A stretch of 64,000 nucleotides of DNA from Chondrosia reniformis (lineage: Eukaryota > Porifera > Demospongiae > Chondrillida > Chondrillidae). The stretch's first letter is position 1; the number at the start of each line of letters is the position of its first letter. The notes under the pieces are model-generated. The model had not been told where the DNA came from. It did no database searches and worked only from the letters and a program-made list of their open reading frames with translations. The stretch covers positions 7,502,001 through 7,566,000 of the forward strand of contig OX359190.1 of NCBI GenBank assembly GCA_947172415.1, given 5' to 3'. This document shows positions 1 to 60,860 of this stretch, one piece after another. The position numbers and the translations under genes are program-made.

Positions 1-3000
1 GAGATAGGGCAAATTTTAAATTTCATCAAAATTTCAAAAACCCATTGGACATGCTCTATAGATGTCTGTGAATGCTGACACAAAGATTTAGCTTCATATC
101 TCTCCATTTGATAGAGTGACAGCCCTCAATGTACATTAAATTCTGGTATACAAAGTTAATGTATGGTGAGAGATAGGGCAAATTTTAAATTTCATCAAAA
201 TTTCAAAAACCCATTGGACATGCTCTATAGATGTCTGTGAATGCTGACACAAAGATTTAGCTTCCTATTTCTCCATTTGATAGAGTGAAAGCCCTCTATG
301 TACATTAAATTCTGTATACCAAGTTAATGTATGGTGAGAGATAGGGCAAATTTTAAATTTCATCAAAATTTCAAAAACCCATTGGACATGCTCTATAGAT
401 GTCTGTGAATGCTCACACAAAGATTTAGCTTCATATCTCTCCATTTGATAGAGTGACAGCCCTCAATGTACATTAAATTCTGGTATACAAAGTTAATGTA
501 TGGTGAGAGATAAGGCAAATTTTAAATTTCATCAAAATTTCAAAAACCCATTGGACATGCTCTATAGATGTCTGTGAATGCTGACACAAAGATTTAGCTT
601 CATATTTCTTCATTTGATAGAGTGACAGCCCTCAATGTACATTAAATTGTGGTATTTAAAGTTAATGTATGGTGAGAGATAGGGCAAATTTTAAGTTTCA
701 TCAAAATTTCAAAAACCCATTGGACATGATCTATAGATGTCTGTGAAGGCTGACACAAAGATTTAGCTTCCTATTTCTCCATTTGATAGAGTGACAGCCC
801 TCAATGTACAGTATACAAAGTTATGTATAGTGAGAGATAGGGCAAATTTTAAATTTCATCAAAATTTCAAAAACCCATTGGACATGCTCTATAGATGTCT
901 GTGAATGCTCACACAAAGATTTAGCATCATATCTCTCCATTTGATAGAGTGACAGTCCTCAATGTACATTAAATTCTGGTATTCAAAGTTAATGTATGGT
1001 GAGAGATAGGGCAAATTTTAAATTTCATCAAAATTTCAAAAAACCCATTGGACATGCTCTATAGATGTCTGTGAATGCTCACACAAAGATTTAGCATCAT
1101 ATCTCTCCATTTGATAGAGTGACAGTCCTCAATGTACATTAAATTCTGGTATACAAAGTTAATGTATGGTGAGAGATAGGGCAAATTTTAAATTTCATCA
1201 AAATTTCAAAAAACCCATTGGACATGCTCTATAGATGTCTGTGAATGCTCACACAAAGATTTAGCATCATATCTCTCCATTTGATAGAGTGACAGTCCTC
1301 AATGTACATTAAATTCTGGTATACAAAGTTAATGTATGGTGAGAGATAGGGCAAATTTTAAGTTTCATCAAAATTTCAAAAACCCATTGGACATGCTCTA
1401 TAGATGTCTGTGAATGCTCACACAAAGATTTAGCTTCATATTTCCCCATTTGATAGAGTAACAGCCCTCAATGTACATTAAATTCTGGTCTACAAAGTTA
1501 ATGTATGGTGAGAGATAAGGCAAATTTTAAATTTCATCAAAATTTCAAAAACCCATTGGACATGCTCTATAGATGTCTGTGAATGCTCACACAAAGATTT
1601 AGCTTCATATCTCTCCATTTGATAGAGTGACAGCCCTCAATGTACATTAAATTCTGGTATACAAAGTTAATGTATGGTGAGAGATAAGGCAAATTTTAAA
1701 TTTCATCAAAATTTCAAAAACCCATTGGACATGCTCTATAGATGTCTGTGAATGCTGACACAAAGATTTAGCTTCATATTTCTTCATTTGATAGAGTGAC
1801 AGCCCTCAATGTACATTAAATTGTGGTATTTAAAGTTAATGTATGGTGAGAGATAGGGCAAATTTTAAGTTTCATCAAAATTTCAAAAACCCATTGGACA
1901 TGATCTATAGATGTCTGTGAAGGCTGACACAAAGATTTAGCTTCATATTTCTCCATTTGATAGAGTGACAGCCCTCAATGTACAGTATACAAAGTTATGT
2001 ATAGTGAGAGATAGGGCAAATTTTAAATTTCATCAAAATTTCAAAAACCCATTGGACATGCTCTATAGATGTCTGTGAATGCTCACACAAAGATTTAGCA
2101 TCATATCTCTCCATTTGATAGAGTGACAGTCCTCAATGTACATTAAATTCTGGTATTCAAAGTTAATGTATGGTGAGAGATAGGGCAAATTTTAAATTTC
2201 ATCAAAATTTCAAAAAACCCATTGGACATGCTCTATAGATGTCTGTGAATGCTCACACAAAGATTTAGCATCATATCTCTCCATTTGATAGAGTGACAGT
2301 CCTCAATGTACATTAAATTCTGGTATACAAAGTTAATGTATGGTGAGAGATAGGGCAAATTTTAAATTTCATCAAAATTTCAAAAACCCATTGGACATGC
2401 TCTATAGATGTCTGTGAATGCTCACACAAAGATTTAGCTTCATATTTCCCCATTTGATAGAGTGACAGCCCTCAATGTACATTAAATTCTGGTCTACAAA
2501 GTTATTGTATGGTGAGAGATAGGGCAAATTTTAAATTACATCAAAATTTCAAAAACCCATTGGACATGCTCTATAGATGTCTGTGAATGCTCACACAAAG
2601 ATTTAGTATCATATCTCTCCATTTGATAGAGTGACAGTCCTCAATGTACATTAAATTCTGGTATACAAAGTTAATGTATGGTGAGAGATAGGGCAAATTT
2701 TAAATTTCATCAAAATTTCAAAAACCCATTGGACATGCTCTATAGATGTCTGTGAATGCTCACACAAAGATTTAGCATCATATCTCTCCATTTGATAGAG
2801 TGACAGTCCTCAATGTACATTAAATTGTGGTATTCAAAGTTAATGTATGGTGAGAGATAGGGCAAATTTTAAATTTCATCAAAATTTCAAAAAACCCATT
2901 GGACATGCTCTATAGATGTCTGTGAATGCTCACACAAAGATTTAGCTTCATATTTCCCCATTTGATAGAGTAACAGCCCTCAATGTACATTAAATTCTGG

Positions 3001-4145
3001 TCTACAAAGTTAATGTATGGTGAGAGATAAGGCAAATTTTAAATTTCATCAAAATTTCAAAAACCCATTGGACATGCTCTATAGATGTCTGTGAATGCTC
3101 ACACAAAGATTTAGTATCATATCTCTCCATTTGATAGAGTGACAGTCCTCAATGTACATTAAATTCTGGTATACAAAGTTAATGTATGGTGAGAGATAGG
3201 GCAAATTTTAAGTTTCATCAAAATTTCAAAAACCCATTGGACATGCTCTATAGATGTCTGTGAATGCTCACACAAAGATTTAGCTTCATATTTCTCCATT
3301 TGATAGAGTGAAAGCTCTCTATGTACATTAAATTCTGGTCTACAAAGTAATGTATTGTGAGAGATAGGGCAAATTTTAAGTTTCATCAAAATTTCAAAAA
3401 CCCATTGGACATGCTCTATAGATGCCTGTGAATGCTGACACAAAGATTTAGCTTCATATTTCTCCATTTGATAGAGTGACAGCCCTCAATGTACATTAAA
3501 TTCTGGTATACAAAGTTAATGTATGGTGAGAGATAGGGCAAATTTTAAGTTTCATCAAAATTTCAAAAACCCATTGGACCTGCTCTATAGATGTCTGTGA
3601 ATGCTCACACAAAGATTTAACTTCATATTTCCCCATTTGATAGAGTGACAGCCCTCAATGTACATTAAATTCTGGTATTTAAAGTTAATGTATGGTGAGA
3701 GATAAGGCAAATTTTAAGTTTCATCAAAATTTCAAAAACCCATTGGACATGATCTATAGATGTCTGTGAATGCTGACACAAAGATTTAGCTTCATATTTC
3801 TTCATTTGATAGAGTGACAGCCCTCAATGTACAGTATACAAAGTTATGTATAGTGAGAGATAGGGCAAATTTTAAATTTCATCAAAATTTCAAAAACCCA
3901 TTGGACATGCTCTATAGATGTCTGCGAATGCTGACACAAAGATTTAGCGTCATATTTCTCCATTTGATAGAGTGACAGCCCTCAATGTACATTAAATTCT
4001 GGTATTCAAAGTTAATGTATGATGAGAGATAGGGCAAATTTTAAATTTCATCAAAATTTCAAAAACCCATTGGACATGCTCTATAGATGTCTGCGAATGC
4101 TGACACAAAGATTTAGCTTCATATCTCGCCATTTGATAGAGTTAC
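1..4145. repeat. ~168-bp satellite array, about 25 monomers
   Basis: Head-to-tail monomers of 168-169 bp, each opening with GAGATAGGGCAAATTTTAA and closing near AATGTATGGT, fill the window from its first base, so the array probably continues to the left. A few monomers are about 11 bp shorter (tails at about 811, 1985 and 3834). Variants recur at fixed offsets: the TCTTCATTTG/GTGGTATTTAA variant and the short-tail variant both reappear 1,174 bp later, which implies a higher-order unit of seven monomers. Short ORFs on the minus strand simply read through the monomers and I do not regard them as genes. Confidence 0.97.
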
Positions 4146-4373
4146 AGAACTACAGTTACTGTACTGCTTTGTTAGAGAAAATTGCGTAATACTATATATG
4201 GCCGACCGTTAGAAGGTATAATATTATAATAAAGAAAAAAATTCCATACTATATCTGAAAATCTAGAATACTTTCCATTTTTTATACATAGGGATATATC
4301 CTCTGTAGTACTTGATTGTTATTGAAGTACTATCTATCCATATATTTTATATGGATCTCGTTAAAGTGAAATT

Positions 4374-6506: not shown

Positions 6507-9500
6507 TTAGGAATGAATGTTATTATGAGTTGCAACATCAAGTGTTAATTCAACTTTTTGGGGTTTAATGTCCTTTCCCCTTAGACCTGCCATAAACATA
6601 GCAGGTTTTGGTACACTAGTAGCATGGTCACTCCTTGTCTGAGATTCCTTTGTCCTATATGTACACACATAAAGATAGAAGGGACTAACCAAGTTATTCA
6701 ACATGATGTACAACCCTACCAAACACTCTACACACAAACATATGTATTAAATTATTCTGTGATAATGAAACCACAACCATCTTGATGTATCTTTTGAAAG
6801 GTCACTGAAGAAGACCCTCGGGGTCAAAATGCCTGACAACCAAGAAGAGATAACATAACTGTGTCTTTAGACGCTCTAAAAGTTGAAGGGTGATCCTTTC
6901 AAAAGATAAGTTCGACACAGTTAGAAGAAATCCTTATTCTATAATCTTGATGTATTAATAAGAATATGCACAATTAAGTTACAAATCTACTACACTCAAT
7001 CCTCCTTTATCCGGATGCCCAAGATACAGGCATGTCCCTCTACGAGGCAGCATGAAAGTGGTTGCTGAGTCAGTAAGCTGATAAAATGGCAATGGCAGCA
7101 GTTGCGTACATGTCCTGTGCATGGCCATTTTTGGAGGCAAATGTGCTTACCGATCTTGTTAATCGCCAAGAATGTGAACAAGTTCAGCAGCAAAGTGTGA
7201 AGTCAATTTTGAAATTCATTTTCCTCACACAGCAAGCGTTGTAGCTTACTCAATTTGTATATAAAACAGCTATACTCTTCAAGTGTTCTGAGTTCCGGCA
7301 TATCTGAGTTACGGACAGTGCCCGGTTACAAGGTGCCCCGATAAGGGAGGATTGAGTGTACTGGTAATTAGTTTATGCTATGTAGTATGAATTGTCAGCA
7401 AATGTGTGATACAAATGAACTACCAACTTTGAAAGGTAGACTTGAGTGTCATTCTCTCTTCTGTAGTGACTGAGGTCAGTTTGAGTTGAGTGAGTTAACT
7501 TTTGACGAAGGTTGGCCTGTTAGAACATAAATGTAAGTACTATGACTATTGAATAGAATGCACTGTATGTGCCATGACCGTAAACAATACGTGTATATAC
7601 ATACACACATACATATGTACCTCAAGTACCTGAACCAAGGAAAAGACAATGTAGGCAATTTGCCTTTTCTACAGCTTAAATGATTATAAAAAATGTTTTT
7701 TAATAAAAAAGTAATAATTTAATGTAGCTTACTAATTTAATGGCCTTTCTCCTAAGTTCCCATTCATTCCATTCATATGACTTAACAATGTTTGATTCCA
7801 TAGGATGAGTATCAGTTTGTGTTCCAGCATCTGCCTTCATCACCGGGGGCACTATCAAGCCTTCCTACATGCATATATACAGTATATATTCATCAGCATG
7901 TACAGACATCAATGTAGCTAAACCATACATAATGACCCTTAGATTTAACATTGACAGTCAAGGATTCACAAAAGATCAAGAAAAAGACCCAGGGTCACTG
8001 ATGAAGGGTGGAATTCCCAGAAGCAGCTGTCTGGCCCAGTGGAGCAGAAGAAGAAAGAAAAGACTCCTGTATCTTCTTTTTCCAAAGCTCTCATTAGGTG
8101 CAGTTCCCTATGGGCATTTTCATTTATTACAAAGTAGACATAGCACATAGGAAAATGGTGTATTAGATTATTCATCACAAGAGAGTTTCTACAATTAGTG
8201 GAGAAGGAGATGAAAGAAGGGAAAAGAAGGAAGAAAAGACTCCTATATCTTCATCCAAAGCTCTCTCCAGGTTTAGTTCCCCTATAGGCTCTTTTACGGA
8301 ATAGGCATAGCATGTAGGAAATGCAATTAGTAGTCAGTATGCATATTGTACAGATATTATTTAGTACTATGTACAGTGACAACATTAAATTTTTGGTATG
8401 AATAAATCAGTGCCACTCATCATGAGGGTATTCATACCAGCTGTGGCAAGAATGTTTATCAATGTGATTCATGCCTCATCCAGGTAAGGCTTACCATTTT
8501 ACCATTCCTGAGGGGAGCCAAGTGTGAATGCATTCCTAACAGATGAATCAGTTCTGGATTGCGCTTTCCAGCATTAACAGACATGCTCAGATGCCTAAAA
8601 GCACAATCAATTAATGCACATATATTCATACGTACACATTCATATAAAAGCTATAAACATTCAAATGTATGCATGTAAATACATACCCATATCATACATA
8701 TATGCATACACAATAGCAACCGAAGCTGCAAATCAAATGTTCTGTATTATGAGGAGTGTGTAATGACCCACTGGGACAGATACATGTTATGATATACGTA
8801 TGTAAGTACTGGGTCTTCGAGAGGAAACATGAATGGAGTATTGCTGTGGTAATTGTAGCTCAAGTGTAGAGTCCTGGTGGTCATAACCAGCTGTCCTGGG
8901 TTTGATTCCCAGTAATTGCTTTTTTCATGTTTTCCCTCTTCATGTTAGAAAAGGGTTATTTGTGATTCAATTATCACTTCAACTAATATATTATCCACTT
9001 TTTAGTCACTATACGAGGGGAAACATGAATGGAGTATTAACATTACTTAAGTTTGTGTATTAGCTTATGAAAACAAATATACAGTAGATGAATTCTGTGA
9101 CCACCATACGTATGGCATATCATATGAGTAAGCAGCCAATTAAACTCACTTTTCAGGCTCATTAGCAAAGGCATCTGCTGCCTCCCTATTGGAGAAGGCA
9201 TAGTATTTTCCTCTGTACTGTAAAACACCAATGGAAGGGTTGCCAGGCACTATAACACCATTGTGAACGCCAACCATGTGAGCACAGAAGGTCTATGGGA
9301 AGATTTATTTGTGCATATACCTTCAGTTACAATGTTTAATACATCAGATGAGACCAGATTTGTACATGAAAAATCTAAGATACCATTTTCCTACGTGCTA
9401 TATGCCTATTCTGTAAAAGAGCCTATAGGGGAACTAAACCTGAAGAGAGCTTTGGATGAAGATACAGGAGTCTTTTCTTCCTTCTTTTCCCTTCTTTCAT

Positions 9501-12500
9501 CTTCTTCTCCACTGGGTCAGACAGCCGTTTCTGGGAATTCCACCCTTCATCAGTGATCCTGGGAGTCTTTGTCTTTTTCTTTATCTTCTGTGAATCCTTG
9601 GCATACATGTTTTAACTTAGCCTTGCCTTACTTACTGTATAATGTAATGATGTACATACATACGCATATGATAAAGAGTTATGATATGCACAACTTACAT
9701 TAAACTCCAATGGTAATTGATTGAAATTTTTAATATTTTCTGGAAACAAGAATTCTGCCTTGCGATAAGCAGTAACATCCACTCTGTCTTCAAGGTTACT
9801 TTTCTGTTACACATGTCAAAAATAACATTCAATTTGGTAACAGAAATAGTCATATATACGCTGTACGTAGTCTAAATACATACGTACGTAGGTCCATGTA
9901 TGCAAGCATATGTAAGGTGGTCTATATGGACATACCAAGATATGTATGTAAGAACAGACAAGGATATGCCATATACTGTATAGTTAAGCATACCATTTGT
10001 AGTTTGTATCTCACCTGTATTCTTCTCTGCTCATCCGAGAGCACTACTGACTGGTTGACAACTATTTTTATTTCATCTCTAGCTACTATTTCAGCTGTGT
10101 TCTATGTCAAAATCATGTACATACGTATGTACGTATGTACGTATGTAGAAGCAAGGAATATAGATACGTAAGCTATTAGTACACAAACATATGTATGTAT
10201 TGTATACTAATATACCTTCAATAAATCAATGAGCAGTTATATACCAATTGTACGTACGTACAAATGAATATGAGTAAATGCATGAATGTTCAGGTGAAAT
10301 AAGAATAAGATCATTTTTACACATACGTACATCACTTAACCACACAATTCTCAAGTCAGATAGATTATTATTGTCAACGGTACTCACTTTGGTAAAAGGA
10401 GCTAGGCTTGTTAGTAAGCTGCTCAAAACACTCAGTAAAACTACTTCATCTTGGAAGCCACACCAGATTTGAGAAACAGCAATAAAGAGAGGCTATTATA
10501 AAAAGTAAGTACACGTTCATACGGTATATACGTAGTTCCATGTACATAGATACAAACACATACGTACATTTATCTATATGTATATACATATATGTGTATT
10601 AAAGGAGAAATGTGTGAACATTCCATATACATACAATACTGATGTTTACACTCTTGATAGGGTGTTACAGACGTACGTACGTATGTGAAAAGGAAGTTAC
10701 AAGTAGGCACAAAAGAGTGATGTAATTTTAATTGTTTAAATGTGTCAAACAGTTATAGGTGTACTCACGTATACTTGGGAGGTTGGAACAGCTGTCTTAG
10801 TTTGCACTGTGGTCCTCAGAGACTCCATTTTCATCCTAAATTCACCTTCTAACTTGTCGAGTTGCTCGGCACAAGTCAGAACATCAGCCTATTATACAAA
10901 ACATACATATTCCTTACACTTTACACTCACTAGTAGATTATAATGATAGCATTCACGTACATACACATTGACACACCTACATAGGTAGGGATGCAGGGCC
11001 TTCTTAAATTGTACTGTATCGTGCTAACTGTGTAGTCAAATCAAATGATTAGTAATGTAGCTAATCTAAATCTCTAAAATGCATGAAAACCTTTAGCCTC
11101 TGTACTGCACATGACAACATTTTCAAAATATAGCAGTGCAGGTGTAAGCTGTCTTTTTACACGTACATACGTATGTACAAAAGATGCTAAATTCCCCAGA
11201 TAATAACATTTATTTTACCATAAGTATCTTTAGGAATGCTTGGTGTTGCCTTGCATTGATTAATGACTCTTTCATATCCTTAATAGTAGACTCAGGTGGA
11301 GGTGGAAGGGGTGAATCAATCACGTGCACTAAAGCGGCTGTGGAGACAAAAAACATTTTTAAGAAGCTGTGAGTAAGAAATGTGGGTATTACGTAGCATA
11401 GATTTGGTAAGGAAATGAAAGGGAACCTGGGAAGGGTTCTAGTGTGGTAAGCAGTAAAAAAACTATATACTGGCCAATTTTTAAACATTTTGGAAGCAAC
11501 CAATGTATTTCGTACTTAAACCTATCAATCACCATAAGTATGTGTACGTACATAAAGTCATGAAACTGTATATACGTATTTTTTTTATGTACATAGAATG
11601 TTAGAATGTTGTCCCCGTGGCTCTTTAATGTGTACATGGACCATATATTGAGGGAGGCGAAGGAGAGGTTTAGTGGAGGAGTCAAACTGGAAGATAGAAA
11701 TGTGCAGTCTCTCTTATTTGCGGATGACCTAATGCTAGTGGCTGAGAAAGAGGAGGATGTGGAGAGCAATCTAAGGATCTTAGACGGTGTGATGGCAAAG
11801 TGGCAGATGAAGATAAACTGGGGGAAGACTAAGGCAATGGTTGTGAAAAGAGGAGGAGGTCCATGCAATGTATCGGTAAAGGGGGAGAAGATAGAAGAAG
11901 TGAAAGTGATGAAGTATTTAGGGGCAATGTTCAATGAGGAGGGGTCATGCGAAGATGAGGTTGATAGCAGAATAGGGCTGACATGCAGAACCATAGGGGC
12001 ACTGAGAAAGGAGGTTGTAGATCGTAAAGAGCTAAGCAAGGCCACAAAATTGAGAGTATACAATGCCGTGGTGAAGCCTACACTACTCTATGGCAGTGAA
12101 ACGTGGACACTGCAGAACAGGCACAAGAAGAAGCTGCAGGCAACAGAGATGAGATACCTGAGGAAAGTTGAGGGTGTCACAAGAATGGACAGGATGAGAA
12201 GCGATGACATTAGAGAGAGACTGAGGCAAGAAGATGTTATTGATACTGTAATAAGAAAGAAGAAGCAATGGATGAAGAAGATTGAAGAGATGCCAGAAGA
12301 GAGACTAGTGAAGACGGTGTATATAGAGGAGCTGCCAGGAAAGAGACCAAGAGGGAGACCGCGGAAAAGATGGGAAGATGACTTGAATTAATGATAAAAC
12401 TTATACAGAACTGTGCATGCATATATCTAAGTTCGTATATCTTTATTTTAAAGCAACAGGTCCAGTAGGTATTATAACAATATGTATTCTGGCTACCTCC

Positions 12501-34006: not shown

Positions 34007-34905
34007 AGTACTACACAGTGCAAGTTACAAATTTATACACGGATGCAAGTGACTCCCAAGATAATCACACTGAGGTATATAATATAATACGGATGCAAAT
34101 GACTCCCAAAATAATCACAATCAGGTATATTAAACGCTACAAGACTTTAGCCACACTGAAATTCTCAACTGCTGCATACAGAGTAGTAGTCTCTACAGAT
34201 CATATAAGGTTAAATACATGGCCTTCCAATTACCTTTTCACACCTAAGTATAGACTGAAGATGATGCATCTGGATGCCATTATCAGCAAAAATTCCAGTC
34301 TCATGCAGGGGATCTCAGCCAATAATCACCGCAGATTTGACTTGCCTTGAGTGTCAGCTAGGAGTACCATTGGTTGCTTGCATGCATTCACATAAACAAA
34401 GGGTTAGAGACGATTTGGTAACTTGCACACAGGGACATAAAGGCTGGGGCCTTTAATTTATTTCATGAACAATGTCCCTTGTGTGCAAGTTACCAAATCG
34501 TCTCTAACCCTGTTGTTTATGTGAATGCATGCAAGCAACCAATGGTACTCCTAGCTGACACTCAAGGCAAGTCAAATCTGCGGTGATTATTGGCTGAGAT
34601 CCCCTGCATGAGACTGGAATTTTTGCTGATAATGGCATCCAGATGCATCATCTTCAGTCTATACTTAGGTGTGAAAAGGTAATTGGAAGGCCATGTATTT
34701 AACCTTATATGATCTGTAGAGACTACTACTCTGTATGCAGCAGTTGAGAATTTCAGTGTGGCTAAAGTCTTGTAGCGTTTAATATACCTGATTGTGATTA
34801 TTTTGGGAGTCATTTGCATCCGTATTATATTATATACCTCAGTGTGATTATCTTGGGAGTCACTTGCATCCGTGTATAAATTTGTAACTTGCACTGTGTA
34901 GTACT
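34007..34905. repeat. Palindrome P2, ~900 bp
   Basis: Nearly perfect inverted arms of about 430 bp centred at about 34456; ends AGTACTACACAGTGCAAGTT / inverse. The same ~110-codon frame appears in both arms because of the symmetry and is not evidence of coding. The arms are homologous at lower identity to the inner part of P3. Confidence 0.97.
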
Positions 34906-38889: not shown

Positions 38890-40137
38890 TGCATAGAGAG
38901 AAGTAGTTGATACAGATCATCCAATTGCAAGGTAGAACACATGACCTACCAATTACCTTTTCACACCTTAGTATAGACTGAAGATGATGCATCTGCATGC
39001 CATATATCAACAAAGGTTCCAGTCTTAAAGGGGTCTCAGCTAATAACCACAGCAGATTTGATTTGCCTTGTGAGGGAGCTAAGAATACCGATGGTTGGTT
39101 GCATCCATTCGCATAATCAACAGGGTTAGAGACCATTTTGTAACTTGTACACAAGGACATAAAAGGCCAAGGCCTTTATATACGTATGTCATATGATGTC
39201 CCTTGTGTACAAGAAGACAGAGCCTTTCCTGGAGCCATATGAATTATTTATATTATATTATTTATTTATTTATATATATTATGCTTGTTTAAATACAATC
39301 AAGTACTACACAGTGCAAGTTACAAATTTATACACGGATGCAAGTGACTCCCAAGATAATCACACTGAGGTATATAATATAATACGGATGCAAATGACTC
39401 CCAAAATAATCACAATCAGGTATATTAAACGCTACAAGACTTTAGCCACACTGAAACAAGGGACATTGTTCATGAAATAAATTAAAGGCCCCAGCCTTTA
39501 TGTCCCTGTGTGCAAGTTACCAAATCGTCTCTAACCCTGTTGTTTATGTGAATGCATGCAAGCAACCAATGGTACTCCTAGCTGACACTCAAGGCAAGTC
39601 AAATCTGCGGTGATTATTGGCTGAGATCCCCTGCATGAGACTGGAATTTTTGCTGATAATGGCATGCAGATGCATCATCTTCAGTCTTATACTTAGGTGT
39701 GAAAAGGTAATTGGAAGGCCATGTATTTAACCTTATATGATCTGTAGAGACTACTACTCTGTATGCAGCAGTTGAGAATTTCAGTGTGGCTAAAGTCTTG
39801 TAGCGTTTAATATACCTGATTGTGATTATTTTGGGAGTCATTTGCATCCGTATTATATTAAAGTTAAATAAAAACATTCAAAAATGAAGTTAAAAGTAGG
39901 GATGGCACTATAACAGTGATTGGCACATCTAGAAAAAGTAACGAAACAAGAAAGTGATCATATGGTAAGGCTAACATTGCAGAAGTGGCATACTGAAACT
40001 TATCACTTCTATGTTTGGGCGCATCATGGATATACTAGAAGTAGGGATCGATGCGCCCAAACATAGAAGTGATGTGTATAGTTAAGTTTCAGTATGCCAC
40101 TTCTGCAATGTTAGCCTTACCATATGATCACTTTCTG
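38890..40137. repeat. Scrambled pieces of P3, P2 and P1
   Basis: In order: a half-copy of the inner P3 arm (38890-39215) joined to the outer end of P3 (39216-39262, GGAGCCATATGAATTATTTA), then a P2 piece running from its end (39293) to about 39455, joined directly to the P2 centre and opposite arm (to 39858), then a P1 copy (39859-40137) whose right arm stops abruptly. The middle of one P2 arm is missing compared with the full copy. Confidence 0.85.
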
Positions 40138-40144
40138 TGCTTGG

Positions 40145-46362: not shown

Positions 46363-48312
46363 TCATCCTCTTAGGTGGGCAATATCACCTAAAACAAGAT
46401 ATGTAGTTATTCCTGCTATTACTCCGGCAGTGTAGAGTAGGAAGGTCACTATCATACAGACTGCATTGCAACAAAATGCTCTTCTGCTGTTCTTCTTGGA
46501 TTCATTGTAATCTTTCCTTCTGGCGGCAGAGTATGCCTAAAAACACGAGTACAAATAAAACAAATGCATAAGATCATAACATTGTGGTAATACTAACTAC
46601 ACAAATAAAAATAAATACTGTACATATTAATAAAACACATGTATGGCTCAGTGGAGAAGAGAAATAGGAAAGACAATCTTGTATCCTCATCTAAAGCTCT
46701 CACTAGGCTTAGTTCCCTATAGACCTTTACTCTAAAGTAGACGTAGCATGTAAGAAAATGGTGTATCTGATTATTTCTGCATGAATTTCTTGTTTAATGA
46801 TAATAATAATACAGTACTTTTTGGGTCGGTTGCCCAGAGACCAAACATTGCAATCGGTAACTAGCAACTACCACTTGAACAAGCTTTCTCAATAGAATGA
46901 CGTCACCATGCATCAGTGATAACCTTTTACGATTACCAATTGCAATGTCTGGTCTGGACAACCGACTCATAAAGTACTGTATTGTTAAAATGACACACAC
47001 AATATACAATATCCTCCGTTAGCATACATTAGCTCCAAACACAACTGCGGGGATAGTGCAACACCACATCAACATTAATGTTAGAAAGAAGGCAAATATG
47101 CTTGTGACGACAGACAGCATAAGGTAACTAGGTGGGTATATGGGTTGCTTGGTAGTGCTGTCTGGAGTAGCTGATTCAGCATTGTTGGGCCTCCTGTCTG
47201 GTGTTAAACTTTGTCCATGATCCACTGGTATACCTGCAGTCATACCACTAGGTTCTGATGGCCTCTCTGAGATGACAGATATATAATCCAACATAAAAAG
47301 TGAAATAGAGCACTTCAAAATATAAAGTTTTAAGTAAGGAAGGCAGTGCTTGTAATAGTGACTAGAATAATTAAATAAACACGCAATAACGTTAATCATA
47401 AAGATGTTTAATAGTAAAATTTAAGTGACTTCATTATAAACACCATTTCTATATGCTTAGGCACACTAATACAGCTGAAGTATGGATGATGCACACAGTT
47501 CATGTATATTGAATTACATAGGCTTTTTTACAGAATAGGCATAGCATGTAGGAAAATGGTATACTAGATTTTTCATTGAAATAAAAAGATTGACTTTAGG
47601 AGCTTTTAAAATCGGTGTAGGTAATTTTTAGGGATGAAAGAAGTCTTAGAACAGTAGACTATACGTACTCACAACTATACCAATGTGCTGGAAGGCCTTT
47701 TCGGAGAATATTACTCCTCATCAGTAGCACTGGGTATTCTGGAGTCGCCAAGTACCAAATACCCAGACTTTCGAAAGGGATTCAACAAGCAACTCTACTA
47801 CAACTACAATATCTCTTTACATTTTTAGGGATGGTTGTTGCGCAACAAAAGGGGACGGACAACAGCAAGACGAGCTCTGTTGGTGCAACCTATTAAACTC
47901 ACGTCCAAGTTACCATGGACGTCGTTCCACATTTACCTTAAGAGCACGCGTTTAACGTTATAACGATGCATTTTTACTAGTAAACTTCAGTCTACTAACG
48001 ACACACAATCTAGTTGGCTACGAATAATATAAGTAGTAGATGCACGAAATCAGAATATCCAGACAACTATGTTGACAGAAAATATATTTCTGAAGGAACT
48101 TAAGAAGAACTGTGAGAGTTCTTCAGTATTGATATTAAGAAGGTAGTAGGACCTCTACCTCGAAAAGCATCGAATTCGCATTTCTAACGGCTGTGCCGCT
48201 ATACGGTTATATATTTTTATAATAACTATAGTTATCAGCCAAAGTAGTAAGTAAGTAATCGTATTTAGGAATCATAGGAGAACTCACCATGAGAGAGAGG
48301 CTGGTAGCTCAT
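46363..48312 (-). CDS. Dispanin A (CD225-domain membrane protein)
   Basis: Three exons, 145 codons plus stop: 48288-48312, 47028-47266, 46363-46536, phases 1 and 0. The short polar N-terminus (MSYQPLSH..., then a Pro/Ser/Thr-rich stretch) leads to a CD225 domain: first hydrophobic segment YLMLSVVTSIFAFFL, double Cys and TIPAVVFG, an intracellular loop AYSAARRKDYNES-KNS with the usual Ala and basic residues, then a transmembrane helix near FLLYTAGVIAGITTYLVLG. Dispanins, which include the IFITM and PRRT families, sit in cellular membranes; no specific role can be read here. It is head-to-head with dispanin B. Confidence 0.88.
46632..46775 (+). repeat. Dispersed repeat family F2, body only
   Basis: Matches F2 from GTGGAGAAGA to GTAAGAAAATGGTGTATC without the ribozyme head. 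Dispanin A intron 2. A further F2 tail fragment lies at 47521-47573. Confidence 0.8.
46812..46979. mobile_element. MITE family M (CAGTACTTTTTGGGTCG), copy 1
   Basis: Inverted termini CAGTACTTTTTGGGTCGGTT and GACAACCGACTCATAAAGTAC with TA on both sides. The other two copies are in the dispanin B gene and its duplicate. Dispanin A intron 2. Confidence 0.85.
47685..47730 (-). ncRNA. Hammerhead ribozyme in a dispanin intron
   Basis: Same strand as dispanin A, inside its first intron. Reading the minus strand: stem I GTGCT/AGCAC (5 bp), core CTGATGA, stem II GGAG/CTCC (4 bp, loop TAATATT), core GAAA, a two-base-pair stem III (AA/UU, loop GGCC), cleavage position C after UU. All conserved core positions are present and stem II has the preferred G-C base. 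The length (46 nt) and short stem III match hammerheads of Penelope-like elements and retrozymes. The surrounding sequence is not an F2 body. Cleavage activity is inferred from structure only. Confidence 0.75.
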
Positions 48313-49021
48313 CGTACGGGTTTATACTTTCCACGGCTTCCCACAAATAATTGATCACCTGATCCTAGAGAGAAATCAGCTTATTTCCGTATTCGGGTTC
48401 AATATGGCGGACTATGTGCTGACGAACGACGATTTGCAAATAAATTGTCAAGGGTAAATGTCGATCGAAATTATCATATACTGCCTGCGTATTAAACTTG
48501 GAGTATACTTACAAGTTTTATCGTATTCGTGCTTACTCAACGACTGCATTTTTTCCTGGAAACCATGAGCTTTAAGATCATGTTGAATGTAAGTCGCTAC
48601 CTGTAAAATGTGAACTTTAGCAGCTATATGCAATATATTTTGTGCAAAACAGCGAAGGGACTTCGTAGAAAGAGAGACGGATAGATACTTAGGCCATCAC
48701 CCGATACTTAGATATTATAACCCATCATTTTTTAAAAGATATTTCATATATATAGTTCCTACCACAACCTTCCATCCTGCTATACAAGTCATCACATCCA
48801 GAGTATATGGTCAATTGCTTGATGATAGGATAATTGGCTAATGAAGTATCCAAACAAAGTCAAATAACCTACGTACCTATAGATACATCGAGTTTGTGAA
48901 GACCAATCAACGTTAAAATTTCACTCGAATGTATATGGTCATGTGACGAACAAACTAATTAACTTTCTGAATACCCGTATATATACCCGTATCGTTTTGT
49001 CGTTAGATCTAAAGGGACAAC
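48313..49021. other. Intergenic between dispanins A and B, possible small exons
   Basis: On the plus strand, ATG 48403 opens MADYVLTNDDLQINCQ and meets a GT (48449); 48514-48590 could be a following exon. On the minus strand the same 48522-48602 interval reads VATYIQHDLKAHGFQEKMQS between good splice signals. The two readings exclude each other and I recognise neither. The stretch 48904-49021 is the duplicated dispanin B promoter and leader. Confidence 0.3.
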
Positions 49022-51631
49022 ATGAACGAAGTTGAAGATCCAGCCGCGCCTCTCCTGGGAAAGCGTAAGATCTTTAATATATCAAATACAAATTGCAACT
49101 GCTATTGGTGTGTGAATTCATGAATTCATGCAGATATTGAATTCGGAAAAGAGCCAATAGTTTTATCGTGGTACTACCTTATATGTTATCGTTTCAACTT
49201 TATATATCATAACGTTAACGTTGAAGGATCTCTATATAAAGAGGGTATTTATGTATACATGTAGTATAAAATAGAACTGCGCGCATCTACTGTAAATTTA
49301 AAGCTTACATGATTATAGTAACATGTATATATGTACATATATTTCTGCAATAACAAGATGTTTAAAATCCATTACAACCGTAGCATTTTGAGTTATACAA
49401 GTATCCTCTCTTAAACCATCCTTTTCAATTTATATACATTTACTGATTTTTACAGTAGAGGCTTCACTTTATAAGTTTAATTTTAATATAATACATTCAG
49501 TGGTATTTAGGGACTGCATAATGGGATAACTTACACTTGAGTCCAGTCAAAACACTGCATATTTAGAAAGGTGACAACCATGATACAGAGACTATATACA
49601 TGATCATTCCAATTGACTTATATTACTTATAGGCATCTACGAGGGGTATTAAACTTTTTGAAATTGAAGGAATTTGCATTTGTATTAAAATGACATTGTC
49701 TGAGTTAAAACACTTAAGAAAGGGGCAAAATTATGGAATTTGGACTTACATTTTAGAGTACATGTTTACAAACCTTTTAACAAATTAAATGTTACTTTGA
49801 AACCTCTTGATTCTCTTGAATTTCTCAGTTATTTTTATATAAAATTTAGGGAATAAGTCATAAATGTGAGATATTAAGTATATCTATGCACTGCTCCATA
49901 TTAACTGCTATAGAGGTTCCCCCACCTGGCCATGGTCCACCACAAGGTTACCAATCAGTCCCACCATCTTATGACACAGTTCCAAACTCTCCTCAACTCA
50001 GTCATGGTTATGGAGCTATATATGATGCTGTAAGTCTGTGTAGTTCGATAATTTTCTCACTATGTTCATCAAATACCAGATATGAAAGTTGCAAATAGGG
50101 CTTCATGCTATAGAAAACTTGAGTTTGGTCCTACTATAACTTTATCATTTTAACTTTTAATTCTCTTGCAGAATGTGGTAATGGAACCACAGCCAACAAA
50201 CCAAGTTGTCATAACAGATGATCCTGGAATATCATCCTACTTAATTCTCTCAGGATTGATGTTGATTTTCTGTTGCTGTTTTGGCGGTTGTTTAGCTTTG
50301 TTTTGCACCATACCAGCTGTGATATGCTCTATGAAGGTAATTATAAAGTTGTATATATTTGCTAATTCCTATGTACGTACATTATATAGCCCTAAAAATG
50401 GTCACCCTATATATAACTGTATTAATATATCATGTTCATTTATTTGATCAATAAATACAGTACTTTTTGGGTCGTTTGTCCAGACCGGACATTGCATTCG
50501 GTAATCATAAAAGGTTATCAAAGCATGCATGGTGATGTCATTCTAACGAAAGTTTGTTCAAAGGGTATAGTCGCGACTTACCGATTGCAACATCAGGTCT
50601 GGACAACCGACCCAAAAAGTATTGTATCCATGCTATATGCACCTATCAATGCTGTTTGAAATGGTTGCAAGGGAGGGTCGTACAGTCTAGTTACAAAATT
50701 CCACTCTTGCATATCAAATACTTATTATAGACCTCAAACTCCATAACAAATTAAACCAGTTACAATTGAATTGAGTGTGAATGTGATCAAGCTATATATA
50801 TTTACACATTAATAACCAAAAGTCAACGTATACATATTATGTAATGGGCTGTGATGAAGCCTTGGCTGAATACAATTATGTTCTGCTGGAAGTCCGAGGA
50901 AATACGCAGGTTATATATATATATACATATACTATATATATCACTTGCTATTTTGTCATTTGATTTTTTATAACCATTTATGATCCCAAGTTGCCTGCAT
51001 GCTATGCATGGCAATGGGGTATAAATCAGTTATAACCCATTTCCTCAGAAATAATAAAATTACTCAGTCTTGACTCTGCCTTGGCCTTGTATTATACTTT
51101 CCCCATATATACATAATCATCATCTCTGAGCTATGTATTAGTTATACCACGGCGCTGAGGTGTATATGGGTTTATATACGTACTCGCCCTCGTGACTCAT
51201 ACATATAAAATCCAAGTGCTGTGGTATAAGTGATATATACTCCGAAGCTTCTTATCGTTATTTTGGCGGGAATTTAAGAATCCGAGGGCAGTGTATAGCT
51301 TCTTAAACAGAATTTAAGAATCCGAGGGCAGTATATAGCTTCTTAAATACTGTTATATCCTGGCGGTTGCCCCGGCAACGGGGTATATATATATATATAA
51401 CTATGATATATAAAATGCATGTACATTATTGCTATTTTAAACAATGGTTAGGCGATGGAAGAGAATTCTAATGGTGAGATGGAGAATGCAAGAAGGTCTA
51501 ACAAGGCATCTCTCTCCCTGAACCTTGGAGCTGTTGTATGCGGAGTTGTGAATATAGTAATATTAGTAGTCTCATTGTTTATCTACTTTAATTCTGCAGC
51601 CTATCAAAACGACAATCCTAATTACAATTAG
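49022..51631 (+). CDS. Dispanin B (CD225-domain membrane protein)
   Basis: Four exons, 167 codons plus stop: 49022-49064, 49914-50029, 50172-50336, 51452-51631, in phase. Exons 1-2 encode an acidic start and a proline/tyrosine-rich tail (QVPPPGHGPPQGYQ, VPPSYDTVP with a PPSY motif) that could bind WW domains. Exon 3 holds the first membrane segment (ISSYLILSGLMLIFCCCFGG, TIPAVICSMK) with clustered cysteines, likely palmitoylation sites as in IFITM proteins. Exon 4 holds the loop (ENARRSNKASLSLN) and the second helix (GVVNIVILVVSLFIYF). Intron 3 carries a MITE M copy (50458-50624). Confidence 0.9.
50458..50624. mobile_element. MITE family M, copy 2
   Basis: CAGTACTTTTTGGGTCGTTT and its inverse, TA-flanked, in dispanin B intron 3. 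Its duplicate is at 54948-55115. Confidence 0.85.
51143..51345. repeat. Small foldback and a 38-bp direct repeat
   Basis: TTATACCACGGCGCTGAGG and AAGTGCTGTGGTATAAG are inverted (51143-51230). Next to it GAATTTAAGAATCCGAGGGC-AGT-TATAGCTTCTTAAA occurs twice in tandem (about 51269 and 51307). Absent from the duplicate copy at 55.5 kb. Confidence 0.7.
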
Positions 51632-53104: not shown

Positions 53105-53346
53105 CCAAGGATTCACAGAAGATCAAGACAAAGAAAAAGACAGAGACTCCCAGGATCACTGATGAAGGGTGGAATTCCCAGAAACGGCTGTCTGACCCAG
53201 TGGAGAAGAAATGAAAGAAGGGAAAAGAAGGAAGAAAAGACTCTTGTATCTTCATCCAAAGCTCTCTTCAGGTTTAGTTCCCCTATAGGCTCTTTTAACA
53301 GAATAGGCATAGCATGTAGGAAAATGGTATCTTAGATTTTTCATGG
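53105..53346 (+). repeat. Dispersed repeat family F2, full copy
   Basis: The most complete copy: head with ribozyme (53153-53198), purine-rich middle, and tail ATAGGCATAGCATGTAGGAA. Very close to the copy at 9398-9611. Confidence 0.88.
53153..53198 (+). ncRNA. Hammerhead ribozyme, type I, minimal stem III
   Basis: Same 46 nt as the minus-strand copy at 9514-9559: CTGATGA, stem II GGG/CCC, GAAA, two-base-pair stem III with loop GGCU, cleavage C, stem I GGATCA/TGACCC with one mismatch. The copy at 7992-8037 keeps the layout, with better stem I pairing, but not the core. Confidence 0.7.
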
Positions 53347-57199: not shown

Positions 57200-59325
57200 A
57201 TGGCGGATGTAAATTTGATTGTAAAGTGAGCATGCATGTGCAAGTGCGCTTTCTCTTCTGTTTCTGACTTGTAATATGCTTTGAATTGTAGAAATCTCTA
57301 TGGATCAAAGTACTTAAAGAGCTTTCTAGTAAGTGTTTACACTGCATCAGTAGTTCTAGATTCCTATTCTCACTGATGCAGCCATAGCTGCGGGAGGAAT
57401 GTTATATGAGTCACTTTTCCGACATTGGAGTACACTGAGCTACAAATTGTATTCACCAAGGAGACTAGCTTCCTTCTACTGGAGCAAACATCGCTTGCAC
57501 AATACTACCATTACCCGCACACTGTATATTAGGTATTTCAACAGGAAGTACCCATCAGCTAAAGTTGCAGATCTACCTGGGTGTCCTGAATAATTAAATA
57601 GTAAAAATTAACATACACACGACATTAAAAACTCTTAATTAGGTTCAGTTATGTATATCTGGATGTCTCATCTGCCAGCCCTCTTAGGTGTTATATAGTC
57701 TAAAATGACGGCCTACCACTTTTCTCATTATGTAGGAAAGTGGACTGAGGCCGGATGGACGTGCTCCAAGTGGTTGCAGACCTGTTGTCATAAGTGCTGA
57801 CGTCTGTAGTGACACTCTAACTGAGCCTTCTCCTCCGGTTGTAGTGAGAGTGGGGAACACAATGGTGGCATGTGGCATCAGAGCTGTAAGTCTGTTATGT
57901 GTAGTGTGATGAAATAGGATCATCTTATTGTACAATCACCCCTTTGTTACTGCCAAGCAAGTCACCTGTTCCATATACCAGTGTCTGAGGATAAGTGTTA
58001 TTCACTTTTTGTCTTTATTTACCATTCCCTACCTCAGTGGCAAGGTACCATGACTCTACTAATAACCATGGTAACAGATAATGGGATGCCATCCTTTAAT
58101 ATTTATTTCTATCTATCCTGTTGCCATAGGAACTGTCTTCTCCTCAAGCAGAGAGGCCAAACGAAGGCTATATTTTGCCCAATGTAGAAGTACATCCAAT
58201 GTGTGATAGGACAGTTCGACCTGGACCACCTTCAACACAGTCCCAAGTACTGACACAATATCTGAAAGAAATTGTCTCAATGTAAGTTGAATGATATTAT
58301 TATATACATGAGACAATGGGTTGTGCAATATAGACCAAGTGTTTTGCAATGTGTAACTATATTGTGCAATGTAGGGTACCAATTGTCAGGGCTACAGATC
58401 TAATTATTGTCAATGAACAGGTACTGTCCAGTGAACTAGCACAAGTGGTATACTGCAATCGCTTAGTCACATCTTATACTGTACAAACAGAATTACTACA
58501 TTTAGCTGTAATAACTGTAAATTTATCTCTCTGCCCTCCTCCAGTTGTGTTGGTGTTTGTACGTTGATGTCCTTTGCCTGAGTAATGATGGATGTTTATT
58601 GGATGCTGTAGTACTAGCCGCTGTTGTAGCATTACAGAAATGTGAGCTCTATGTGATCCCTCATCCCAGCACACCATTAATAATCACCTCCATGCTGTTG
58701 CTATGGAAACCCTTATCACCACTATGGAACTCATTATGTACTGCTTACTATTCTTTAGTGCAGCTGCCAAAAGTGGTTGTTGAAGAAGGGACTCCCCCTA
58801 AAGTGGATCCCACAAAATGGTTTCCTCTACCTCTCCAGTCCACAGTGGCTTGTGCAACCGTCTGTGTTCTTGAAAAGTTAGTATTTTTAACAAGAAGGAA
58901 TGTATACATTTTTAGCCATCACATTTAATTACAGGAATATCCTCATGGATCCCACTCTAGATGAGTTGATATTGTGTCATTCCACAGTATCACTGCTGAC
59001 AAACACAAAAGGGGATATTTGTGGTCTTTATAAGAAAGGTAAAGAGTGTACAGCCAGACCTCTCTACACCATCACCACTTCTAAAAGCTAATGTTAGATT
59101 CTTCACACACAAACAGACTGTGAATGTTTTATATGTCTTGCTCTATGTGGCTCAGTTAGTAGGAGTTACGCATTAAATGCGTTTCACTTTATTCTGTTTC
59201 TCTACAATCTTTTAGGAGCAGAAATTGAAGATACTATGCTGTTTGAATGCATTTCCAAATTAAAATCAAAATGTCATTCAATTCACAGTTTAATTACTGA
59301 AACATGTACAATGCATACAAAATAA
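57200..59325 (+). CDS. EXOSC8: Exosome complex component RRP43
   Basis: RNase PH-like subunit of the exosome core ring, catalytically inactive in animals. Nine exons, 279 codons plus stop (human 276): 57200-57225, 57292-57328, 57736-57885, 58130-58281, 58375-58420, 58545-58641, 58759-58876, 58935-59038, 59216-59325; all phases agree. Landmarks: YLKSFLESGLRPDGR, VVVRVGNTMVACGIRA, NEGYILPNVE, CWCLYVDVLCLSNDG-LLDA, LPKVVVEEG, CATVCVLEKNILMDPTLDE, GDICGLYKKG and the helical C-terminus (GAEIEDTM-FECISKLK). Exon 6 ends at the strong donor GTGAGC (58642) paired with acceptor TTTAG (58758), which restores the family spacing. The frame is open upstream of 57200 to 57005, but family length favours the start used. 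Confidence 0.94.
57346..57593 (+). CDS. Unassigned ORF inside EXOSC8 intron 2
   Basis: Open frame ending at the stop after 57590, with ATG at 57399 (64 codons) and open upstream to about 57346 (PILTDAAIAAGGMLYESLFR). Basic and aromatic with a possible short hydrophobic start. Its GC content is above that of the intron around it. It could be an alternative exon, a n nested small gene or chance; I recognise no family. Confidence 0.25.
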
Positions 59326-60139: not shown

Positions 60140-60860
60140 TAAACAAGGTCTTCATGGTTGTAAAGAGGCCATGCTGTTTCTTTGAATGTTACTGGAACGT
60201 TGCTGCAGTACTTCTTTTCGCATCACTTTACTGAGTGTAAAAGTGACCCCAGGGCACACCACGTGGAGGTAGAAGTACTTCGTGCCCCAAAAGGCCTCCG
60301 GTTTCTCAACTCTGTTTGACACTTCCACTACTTGCGTCGTAAGAGAAGTTGCTCGGGAACGGTCCGGCGTACCTGACCGACCTGTGACCAGTTACTAGTC
60401 TTGCACTGCCTCACGCTACGGACAGAACAAGCCCGACCCTGGCGGACCACAAACTCCCACCAATGAGAATCATCATGTGCACACAACGCAGCTTGAGAGC
60501 ACTGTACACAGACTTTAGCTCATTGGGATCGGCCAGGTTGCTTTAGAGTAGGGACCCATCGATGAACTACAAGAAAAGAATTAGAGAATACATAATTACC
60601 AGCATAGGACAAACATTGGGCACATACGCATGTAAAATTCCAAATGCAAATGCAAATTCTTCTAAACCAACCTGATGTGGCAGCCTACAATAGCTTCCTG
60701 ACCGACTACGTAGTGGCACTGGACCACACCAACCTCCAGGTACGGGTCGTATAGCAAGAATCCGCAAGTGCCAATTTAACACACAAGCAGGATTAATAGT
60801 GAGATACATCTCCAGGCACTAACCCATAGGTAGAGAGACCACCCCACTATACGAACACCG
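60140..60860. other. GC-richer region with unassigned coding-like pieces
   Basis: Noticeably richer in G+C than its surroundings. Minus-strand pieces such as LLYDPYLEVGVVQCHYVV (about 60660-60760) and NLADPNELKSVYSALKLR (about 60480-60540) look protein-like but do not join into a model I trust. It may be a decayed gene or an old insertion. 59326-60140 is plain intergenic sequence apart from the T/C tract. Confidence 0.3.

What the first reader, a model, noticed from the sequence alone, without database searches (positions are those of the whole stretch)
47685..47730. Complete hammerhead ribozyme fold inside a dispanin intron
A 46-nt minus-strand sequence has all conserved hammerhead core bases, a clean 4-bp stem II, a 5-bp stem I and the two-base-pair stem III typical of Penelope/retrozyme hammerheads. 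It is in sense with the host gene, so it would be transcribed in the pre-mRNA and could cut intron 1.
Basis: partly seen in the sequence, partly recalled or inferred. Interest (0 to 1): 0.85.

Follow-up and report, generated by a model that had tools for sequence, protein, structure and literature searches.

The report
Retrozyme hammerhead in a sponge intron
A short self-cutting RNA motif in a gene's intron is one slightly damaged copy of a small, much-copied mobile element in a sponge genome, and the way these copies sit in the DNA suggests that Penelope-type retrotransposons copied them there.

Summary
In detail: minus strand 47730..47685 has every conserved hammerhead core base. It is not a lone motif. 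The window copy lies in a 184-bp 5'-truncated insertion (47820..47637) between perfect 13-bp target duplications, in predicted intron 1 of a CD225/dispanin gene, same strand. Relatives form tandem repeats of 331-362 bp, so this is a member of the known metazoan non-LTR retrozymes. Stems covary between families (114 of 120 pairs; best of 5,000 shuffles 90). The window copy has lost the stem I pair next to the cleavage site, so it is probably weakened; cutting of the pre-mRNA is untested. Rfam finds no hammerhead here, but it also missed four other copies, three of them intact. Insertion ends cluster at two internal sites downstream of the ribozyme, often with two opposed arms (16 of 31). A few Penelope-like copies in the same genome show a like pattern, supporting the published, unproven idea that Penelope-like elements move retrozymes. 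My limited searches found no sponge retrozyme in print.

The parts
47685..47730 (-). type I hammerhead ribozyme core (stems I, II, III); predicted cleavage after C at 47691
47678..47736 (-). same ribozyme with outer stem I (TACC/GGTA) and internal loop
47637..47820 (-). 184-bp 5'-truncated retrozyme insertion (subfamily B), 40.8% GC
47821..47833 (-). 5' target-site duplication CATCCCTAAAAAT
47624..47636 (-). 3' target-site duplication CATCCCTAAAAAT
47267..48287 (-). predicted intron 1 of the CD225/dispanin gene (GT..AG)
   Evidence: splice sites by eye; no RNA data
48288..48312 (-). predicted coding part of exon 1 (MSYQPLSH)
   Evidence: by eye
47028..47266 (-). predicted exon 2, first part of the CD225 domain
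46363..46536 (-). predicted exon 3 with stop codon, second part of the CD225 domain
   Evidence: by eye

Best explanation
The site is a degenerating, 5'-truncated monomer of a non-autonomous metazoan retrozyme. Family members also occur as partial tandem repeats of units of 331-341 bp, each with one type I hammerhead. Inferred cycle: multimeric transcripts cut themselves at the hammerhead, units may be joined into circles, and a Penelope-like reverse transcriptase primed on cut genomic DNA starts copying the RNA at one of two sites downstream of the ribozyme and runs 5'-ward through it, leaving target duplications of roughly 11-20 bp. The copy in the window landed in intron 1 of a dispanin gene in sense orientation and has lost the base pair beside the cleavage site, so it is most likely a weak or inactive passenger in the pre-mRNA. 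Shown: motif, family, unit repeats, duplications, clustered ends, opposed arms, presence of Penelope-like elements with a like kind of ends. Inferred: RNA cleavage, circle formation, mobilisation by Penelope-like elements, lack of function in the host gene.
For: 79 dispersed matches, reversed control 0. Window insert bounded by an exact 13-bp duplication just outside the end of homology to other copies. Spacing of tandem ribozymes 341 and 331 bp and 4-mers at 359-362 bp in a sister family (100 of 213 places listed). Cross-family covariation, 114 of 120 pairs against a shuffle maximum of 90 in 5,000. 15 of 31 independent insertions have matching flanks of at least 11 bp, and 13 of these end 74-92 nt after the start of CTGATGA. 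16 of 31 carry two opposed arms; in 14 of these 16 one outer end lies 37-63 nt and the other 140-173 nt after the cleavage site (counted by hand). Penelope-like elements with a GIY-YIG domain and a minimal hammerhead lie in the same genome; of seven ends read in six loci, five stop 66-68 nt and two, with a tail, 102-105 nt after the presumed cleavage site, and both double-armed insertions have one end of each kind. A purified lizard Penelope-like protein starts at two adjacent internal RNA sites and extends both target strands (PMC11167929, abstract and passages).
Against: No RNA or activity data. Outside the ribozyme core no clear sequence similarity links the retrozyme unit to the 20 GIY-YIG loci searched (hits of 13-37 bases, E 0.002 or worse), so shared machinery rests on anatomy. 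The two end sites lie about 100 nt apart here, about 37 nt in the Penelope-like copies. The lizard study saw no difference in start site between top and bottom strands, whereas opposed arms here mostly use one site each; [quoted passage not shown] Only about four or five Penelope-like insertions are independent (L040 and L044 are one locus; L045 and L046 are near-identical neighbours). Copies were found by their ribozyme, and six of the loci fetched held two ribozymes close together, which inflates the share of opposed arms. Two of 16 opposed-arm insertions do not fit (L027 both ends at the first site, L052 at 112 nt), and 6 of 15 single-arm copies end outside the main ranges by alignment. Opposed arms also occur in LINE insertions (recalled).
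Confidence: 0.75

Rival explanations
1. The ribozyme is a working part of the dispanin gene: it cuts intron 1 during transcription and tunes splicing or mRNA level, like the conserved intronic hammerheads of amniotes.
For: Same strand as the gene and inside its predicted intron; all core bases and stem II kept. Intronic hammerheads kept across amniotes are described (PMC6155905, passages).
Against: It is one of at least 79 dispersed copies, sits in an insertion with perfect duplications, has the stem I pair at the cleavage site broken, and scores below 29 of the 33 GGAG-family copies (most of which trained the model). Selection on this copy could not be tested.
Confidence: 0.07
2. The retrozyme is mobilised by a LINE by ordinary target-primed reverse transcription with twin priming, not by Penelope-like elements.
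For: 5' truncation, variable duplications and opposed arms also fit LINEs (recalled); a LINE-like reverse transcriptase fragment lies in the window (11597-12388).
Against: No poly(A) or simple-repeat tail evident by eye in the alignment; copying starts at two internal sites, and both kinds of end are found together in opposed-arm insertions, as in two Penelope-like insertions of the same genome. No LINE 3' ends were compared.
Confidence: 0.25
3. The match is a chance hammerhead-like sequence.
For: Rfam reports no hammerhead; single-strand folding is not better than shuffles.
Against: 79 matches against 0 for the reversed pattern, covariation between families, E 1.6e-21 with a model that left it out, and Rfam also missed four other copies.
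Confidence: 0.01

Closest known systems
Metazoan non-LTR retrozymes with type I hammerheads (Cervera and de la Pena 2020, PMC7229834; abstract, passages and sections 13, 14, 17 read)
   Same: Type I hammerhead with 2-bp stem III and tetraloop; tandem units of a few hundred bp; GC below 50%; target duplications longer than 4 bp; co-existing Penelope-like elements.
   Different: The words sponge and Porifera do not occur in that main text; here insertion ends could be mapped to two clustered sites with opposed arms. RNA circles not shown here.
Penelope-like elements, e.g. Poseidon of Anolis (PMC11167929; abstract and passages seen)
   Same: Hammerhead upstream of two internal copying start sites; optional tail; both target strands extended; copies in this genome show a like insertion anatomy.
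   Different: Autonomous, coding for reverse transcriptase and GIY-YIG; minimal hammerhead of other sequence; shorter tail; in the lizard no difference in start site between strands. The retrozyme is non-coding and shares no clear sequence outside the core.
Small hammerhead variants that act as dimers (Lunse et al. 2017, seen only as a reference entry)
   Same: Stem III strands AAGGCCTT and ACAGCTGT are 8-nt palindromes, and co-folding of two copies gains energy over two monomers.
   Different: Here a 2-bp stem III can form in the monomer and stems I and II are intact in most copies; dimer action is predicted only.
Conserved intronic hammerheads of amniotes, RECK and CTCL (PMC6155905, passages)
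   Same: Sense-strand intronic hammerhead.
   Different: Here a dispersed, damaged copy; conservation could not be tested.

Membership tests
Hammerhead ribozyme, type I | Core CUGANGA ... GAAA ... UH | tested here: met
Hammerhead ribozyme, type I | Stems I, II and III form, supported by covariation | tested here: met
   across families (ten hand-picked rows); in the window copy 11 of 12 pairs, pair 1.1-2.1 broken. Within the GGAG family alone it is not clearly supported: 47-70 of 500 shuffles reach the observed value on all five measures
Hammerhead ribozyme, type I | Match to an Rfam hammerhead model | tested here: inconclusive
   no hit for the window nor for four loci with other family copies
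Hammerhead ribozyme, type I | Self-cleavage | not testable with these tools
   needs in vitro assay
Metazoan retrozyme | Type I hammerhead in short tandem repeats of about 150-450 bp | tested here: met
   partial tandems with ribozymes 341 and 331 bp apart, sister family 4-mers at 359-362 bp; the window copy itself is a partial monomer
Metazoan retrozyme | Target duplications longer than 4 bp | tested here: met
   13 bp in the window; 11-20 bp in 15 of 31 insertions, none that long found in the other 16
Metazoan retrozyme | GC below 50% | tested here: met
   36.9-40.8% in the insert and two units; longest open stretch 60 aa
Metazoan retrozyme | No LTR, PBS or PPT | not tested
   no dedicated search made
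Metazoan retrozyme | Abundant circular RNA of unit length | not testable with these tools
   no RNA data; predicted circular folds of two units are 59-62% paired
Penelope-like element | Reverse transcriptase and GIY-YIG coding capacity | tested here: not met
   184-bp insert, units of 331-341 bp, no open stretch above 60 aa

The most novel reading that the evidence does not exclude
Sponge retrozyme insertions bear the mark of Penelope-like machinery: copying starts at two internal sites downstream of the hammerhead, and both target ends are extended so that one insertion often holds two opposed arms, one from each site. If so, this is genomic evidence that Penelope-like elements mobilise a circular or multimeric ribozyme RNA in trans, in a phylum for which my searches found no retrozyme described. 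(Lowered from 0.55 on re-reading the lizard study: its start sites did not differ between strands.)
Probability: 0.5. Interest if true: 0.65.

Novelty: new member of a known kind. Interest (0 to 1): 0.45.

Why it matters
What moves animal retrozymes is an open question: the 2020 paper names Penelope-like elements as a strong candidate, without proof (PMC7229834 discussion). A compact 117-Mb sponge genome with over a thousand hammerhead matches, several retrozyme families and possible Penelope-like drivers, with readable insertion ends, makes that question directly testable. It also warns that Rfam screening can miss hammerheads with a short stem III.

Tried and rejected
Rejected: chance motif; a longer coding element at this site (insert is 184 bp between duplications); clear sequence kinship of the retrozyme unit with the Penelope-like loci outside the ribozyme (hits of 13-37 bases only; several of 31 bases fall on the hammerhead of another family). 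Folding of four single 59-mers was uninformative (z -0.24 to -1.02), and the full hammerhead was not the minimum-energy fold of any of the three monomers scored. Within-family covariation was weak (one pair with a change on both sides; 47-70 of 500 shuffles as high on all five measures) because copies are too alike. The support comes from comparison between families, where I chose 10 distinct rows by hand from the 50 hits, two of them from the window; the detector itself demands pairing in stems I and II, so those rows lean towards being paired. Paper search on the assembly by generic terms found nothing.

Full report
WHAT IS THERE. The minus strand of 47730..47685 contains GTGCTA CTGATGA GGAG TAATATT CTCC GAA AAGGCCTT C CAGCAC. 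This is a type I hammerhead: core bases complete, stem II 4 bp, stem III 2 bp with a GGCC loop, stem I 5 of 6 pairs, then an internal loop and an outer stem TACC/GGTA (47736..47678). Rfam reports no hammerhead at the gathering score, at E up to 10 over the window or over 221 bases around it. It also reports none on four loci with other copies (L003, L005, L006, L008), of which the first three keep all ten pairs of stems I and II (where L003 and L005 are held as L010 and L011). So this negative says little.

FAMILY. A pattern with the same core and stem III loop has 79 matches in the window's own genome and none when read backwards. A looser hammerhead pattern has 1,062 matches against 64 backwards, with some sites listed more than once. 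Counts from this tool are stated to be lower bounds. The genome has 117,379,552 bases in 15 contigs; the ten contig lengths printed agree within 0.01 Mb with the table for Chondrosia reniformis odChoReni1.1 (PMC12181767, passages). A covariance model from 29 copies, window left out, finds the window copy at 79.8 bits, E 1.6e-21. It also finds three other hammerheads in the window, at 9507-9565 (-), 53147-53205 (+) and 7986-8044 (+, with GAAG in place of GAAA), and a fifth, weak match at 57303-57362 (-), E 0.06.

STRUCTURE. Across families the stems change in step: stem I GTGCTA/TAGCAC, GCCATA/TATGGC, ACCACA/TGTGGT, GGATCA/TGACCC (the last with one mismatch); stem II GGAG/CTCC, ATGG/CCAT, GTCC/GGAC, GCCC/GGGC, AGGG/CCCT; stem III strands AAGGCCTT, ACAGCTGT, ACGGCTGT. 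Over ten hand-picked distinct rows 114 of 120 pairs are standard; 5,000 shuffles average 75.5 with maximum 90. Within the GGAG family alone the evidence is weak. Of 40 GGAG-family copies held, 28 keep all ten pairs of stems I and II; 3, including the window copy, have lost the pair at the cleavage site. Co-folding predicts an intermolecular double hammerhead through the palindromic stem III: -36.3 against 2 x -12.0 kcal/mol for the window copy, -38.7 against -29.2 and -41.5 against -32.4 for two others. Single-strand folds are not better than shuffles.

INSERTION. Homology of the window copy to others ends near -90 and +89 of the CTGATGA start. Just outside lies a perfect 13-bp duplication, CATCCCTAAAAAT, at 47833..47821 and 47636..47624, leaving a 184-bp insert. 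The detector was checked on 396 mismatched flank pairs: 35 reached 11 bases and 16 reached 13, partly because flanks share element sequence. Against that, 18 of 40 observed entries reach 11, of which two are internal tandem repeats (L026, L027) and two are one insertion counted twice (L023), leaving 15 insertions; 13 of these end 74-92 nt after the CTGATGA start. Tandem ribozymes stand 341 bp apart in L026 and 331 bp apart in L027; these are partial tandems. A sister family has four-copy arrays spaced 359-362 bp (100 of 213 places listed). The window insert lies in predicted intron 1 (48287..47267) of a gene whose predicted product matches CD225 at 33.1 bits against a cut-off of 27.1 (exon 2 alone gave no match). 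The exon structure is my reading of splice sites, with no RNA data.

HOW IT MOVES. Of 31 independent insertions held (L015 and L016 counted once), 16 have two arms in opposite orientation (counted by hand; six of the 20 loci were visibly double, which inflates this share). In 14 of the 16 one outer end lies 37-63 nt and the other 140-173 nt after the cleavage site. The first site is mostly 40-51 nt in subfamily A and 61-63 nt in B; the second mostly 140-156 nt in A (173 in L018) and 167-171 nt in B. The two that do not fit are L052 (61 and 112 nt) and L027 (both ends at the first site). Of 15 single-arm insertions nine end at 36-47 or 61-62 nt; six align to other ends (L004 24, L024 52, L028 upper copy 13, L049 25, L050 12, window 50), though by their flanking duplications the L028 copy ends at 45 and the window copy at 54. 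The inserts run unbroken across the cleavage junction, so their template was not a cleaved linear monomer; but copies were found by their ribozyme, so this is partly forced by the search.

PENELOPE-LIKE ELEMENTS. A GIY-YIG search gives 38 matches in the genome. Of the 20 loci fetched, six (L038-L040, L044-L046) carry the same Penelope-like element with a minimal hammerhead; five others (L030, L032, L033, L035, L037) have other hammerhead-like motifs. Seven ends were read: five stop 66-68 nt after the presumed cleavage site, two have a tail and stop at 102-105 nt. L040 and L044 are one locus and L045 and L046 near-identical neighbours, so four or five insertions are independent. The two opposed-arm insertions (L038; L044 with L040, GIY-YIG hits about 2.3 kb apart) each have one end of each kind, with 9-bp matching flanks by eye (set off by two bases in L038). 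A lizard Penelope-like protein starts copying at two adjacent internal sites, extends both target strands and leaves an optional tail (PMC11167929, abstract and passages). In that study start sites did not differ between strands and hammerhead cleavage was not needed for insertion in vitro. The retrozyme shares the two-site, two-arm anatomy but no clear sequence outside the ribozyme core, and its two sites lie farther apart.

PLACE AMONG KNOWN THINGS. The features fit metazoan non-LTR retrozymes (PMC7229834, sections read). That paper proposes, without proof, that Penelope-like elements move them. The words sponge and Porifera do not occur in its main text. One search (hammerhead ribozyme, sponge, Amphimedon) gave one paper, on RECK; one search (retrozyme, Porifera, hammerhead ribozyme, any two) gave 31 papers, 10 listed, none of these with Porifera. 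Only open-licence papers are held, so absence from print is not shown. This is a new member of a known kind; the insertion anatomy is the part worth following.

HOST GENE. The ribozyme would be in the pre-mRNA. With the 1.1-2.1 pair broken and two loop II changes against its relatives I expect weak or no cutting, but this was not tested.

Noticed in passing
window 60206-60288 (-): Candidate HDV-like ribozyme below Rfam threshold (28.7 bits, E 0.26, gathering 44), with P1, P2, P3 and P4 pairings visible by eye; a homologous site in L006:539-621 scores 30.4 bits, E 0.37, and a 32-base pattern from it has 236 matches in the genome, reversed control 0. Possibly the 5' end of a retrotransposon (not tested).
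   Followed up: partly
window 9507-9565 (-), 53147-53205 (+), 7986-8044 (+): Three further hammerheads of another family (AGGG..CCC) with 1,195 pattern matches genome-wide; the third has a core change. Of ten copies aligned, eight share an apparent 3' end by eye.
   Followed up: partly
window 1-4147: Satellite array of 169-bp units, 24.7 copies.
   Followed up: no
window 11597-12388 (+): Reverse transcriptase fragment (RVT_1, E 4.5e-15), LINE-like by eye.
   Followed up: no
window 34343-34569 and 39946-40138: Long inverted repeats that score as miRNA precursor families below threshold, possibly short inverted-repeat transposons.
   Followed up: no
window 49000-50320 (+): By eye, a second dispanin-like gene on the other strand, head to head with the first.
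   Followed up: no
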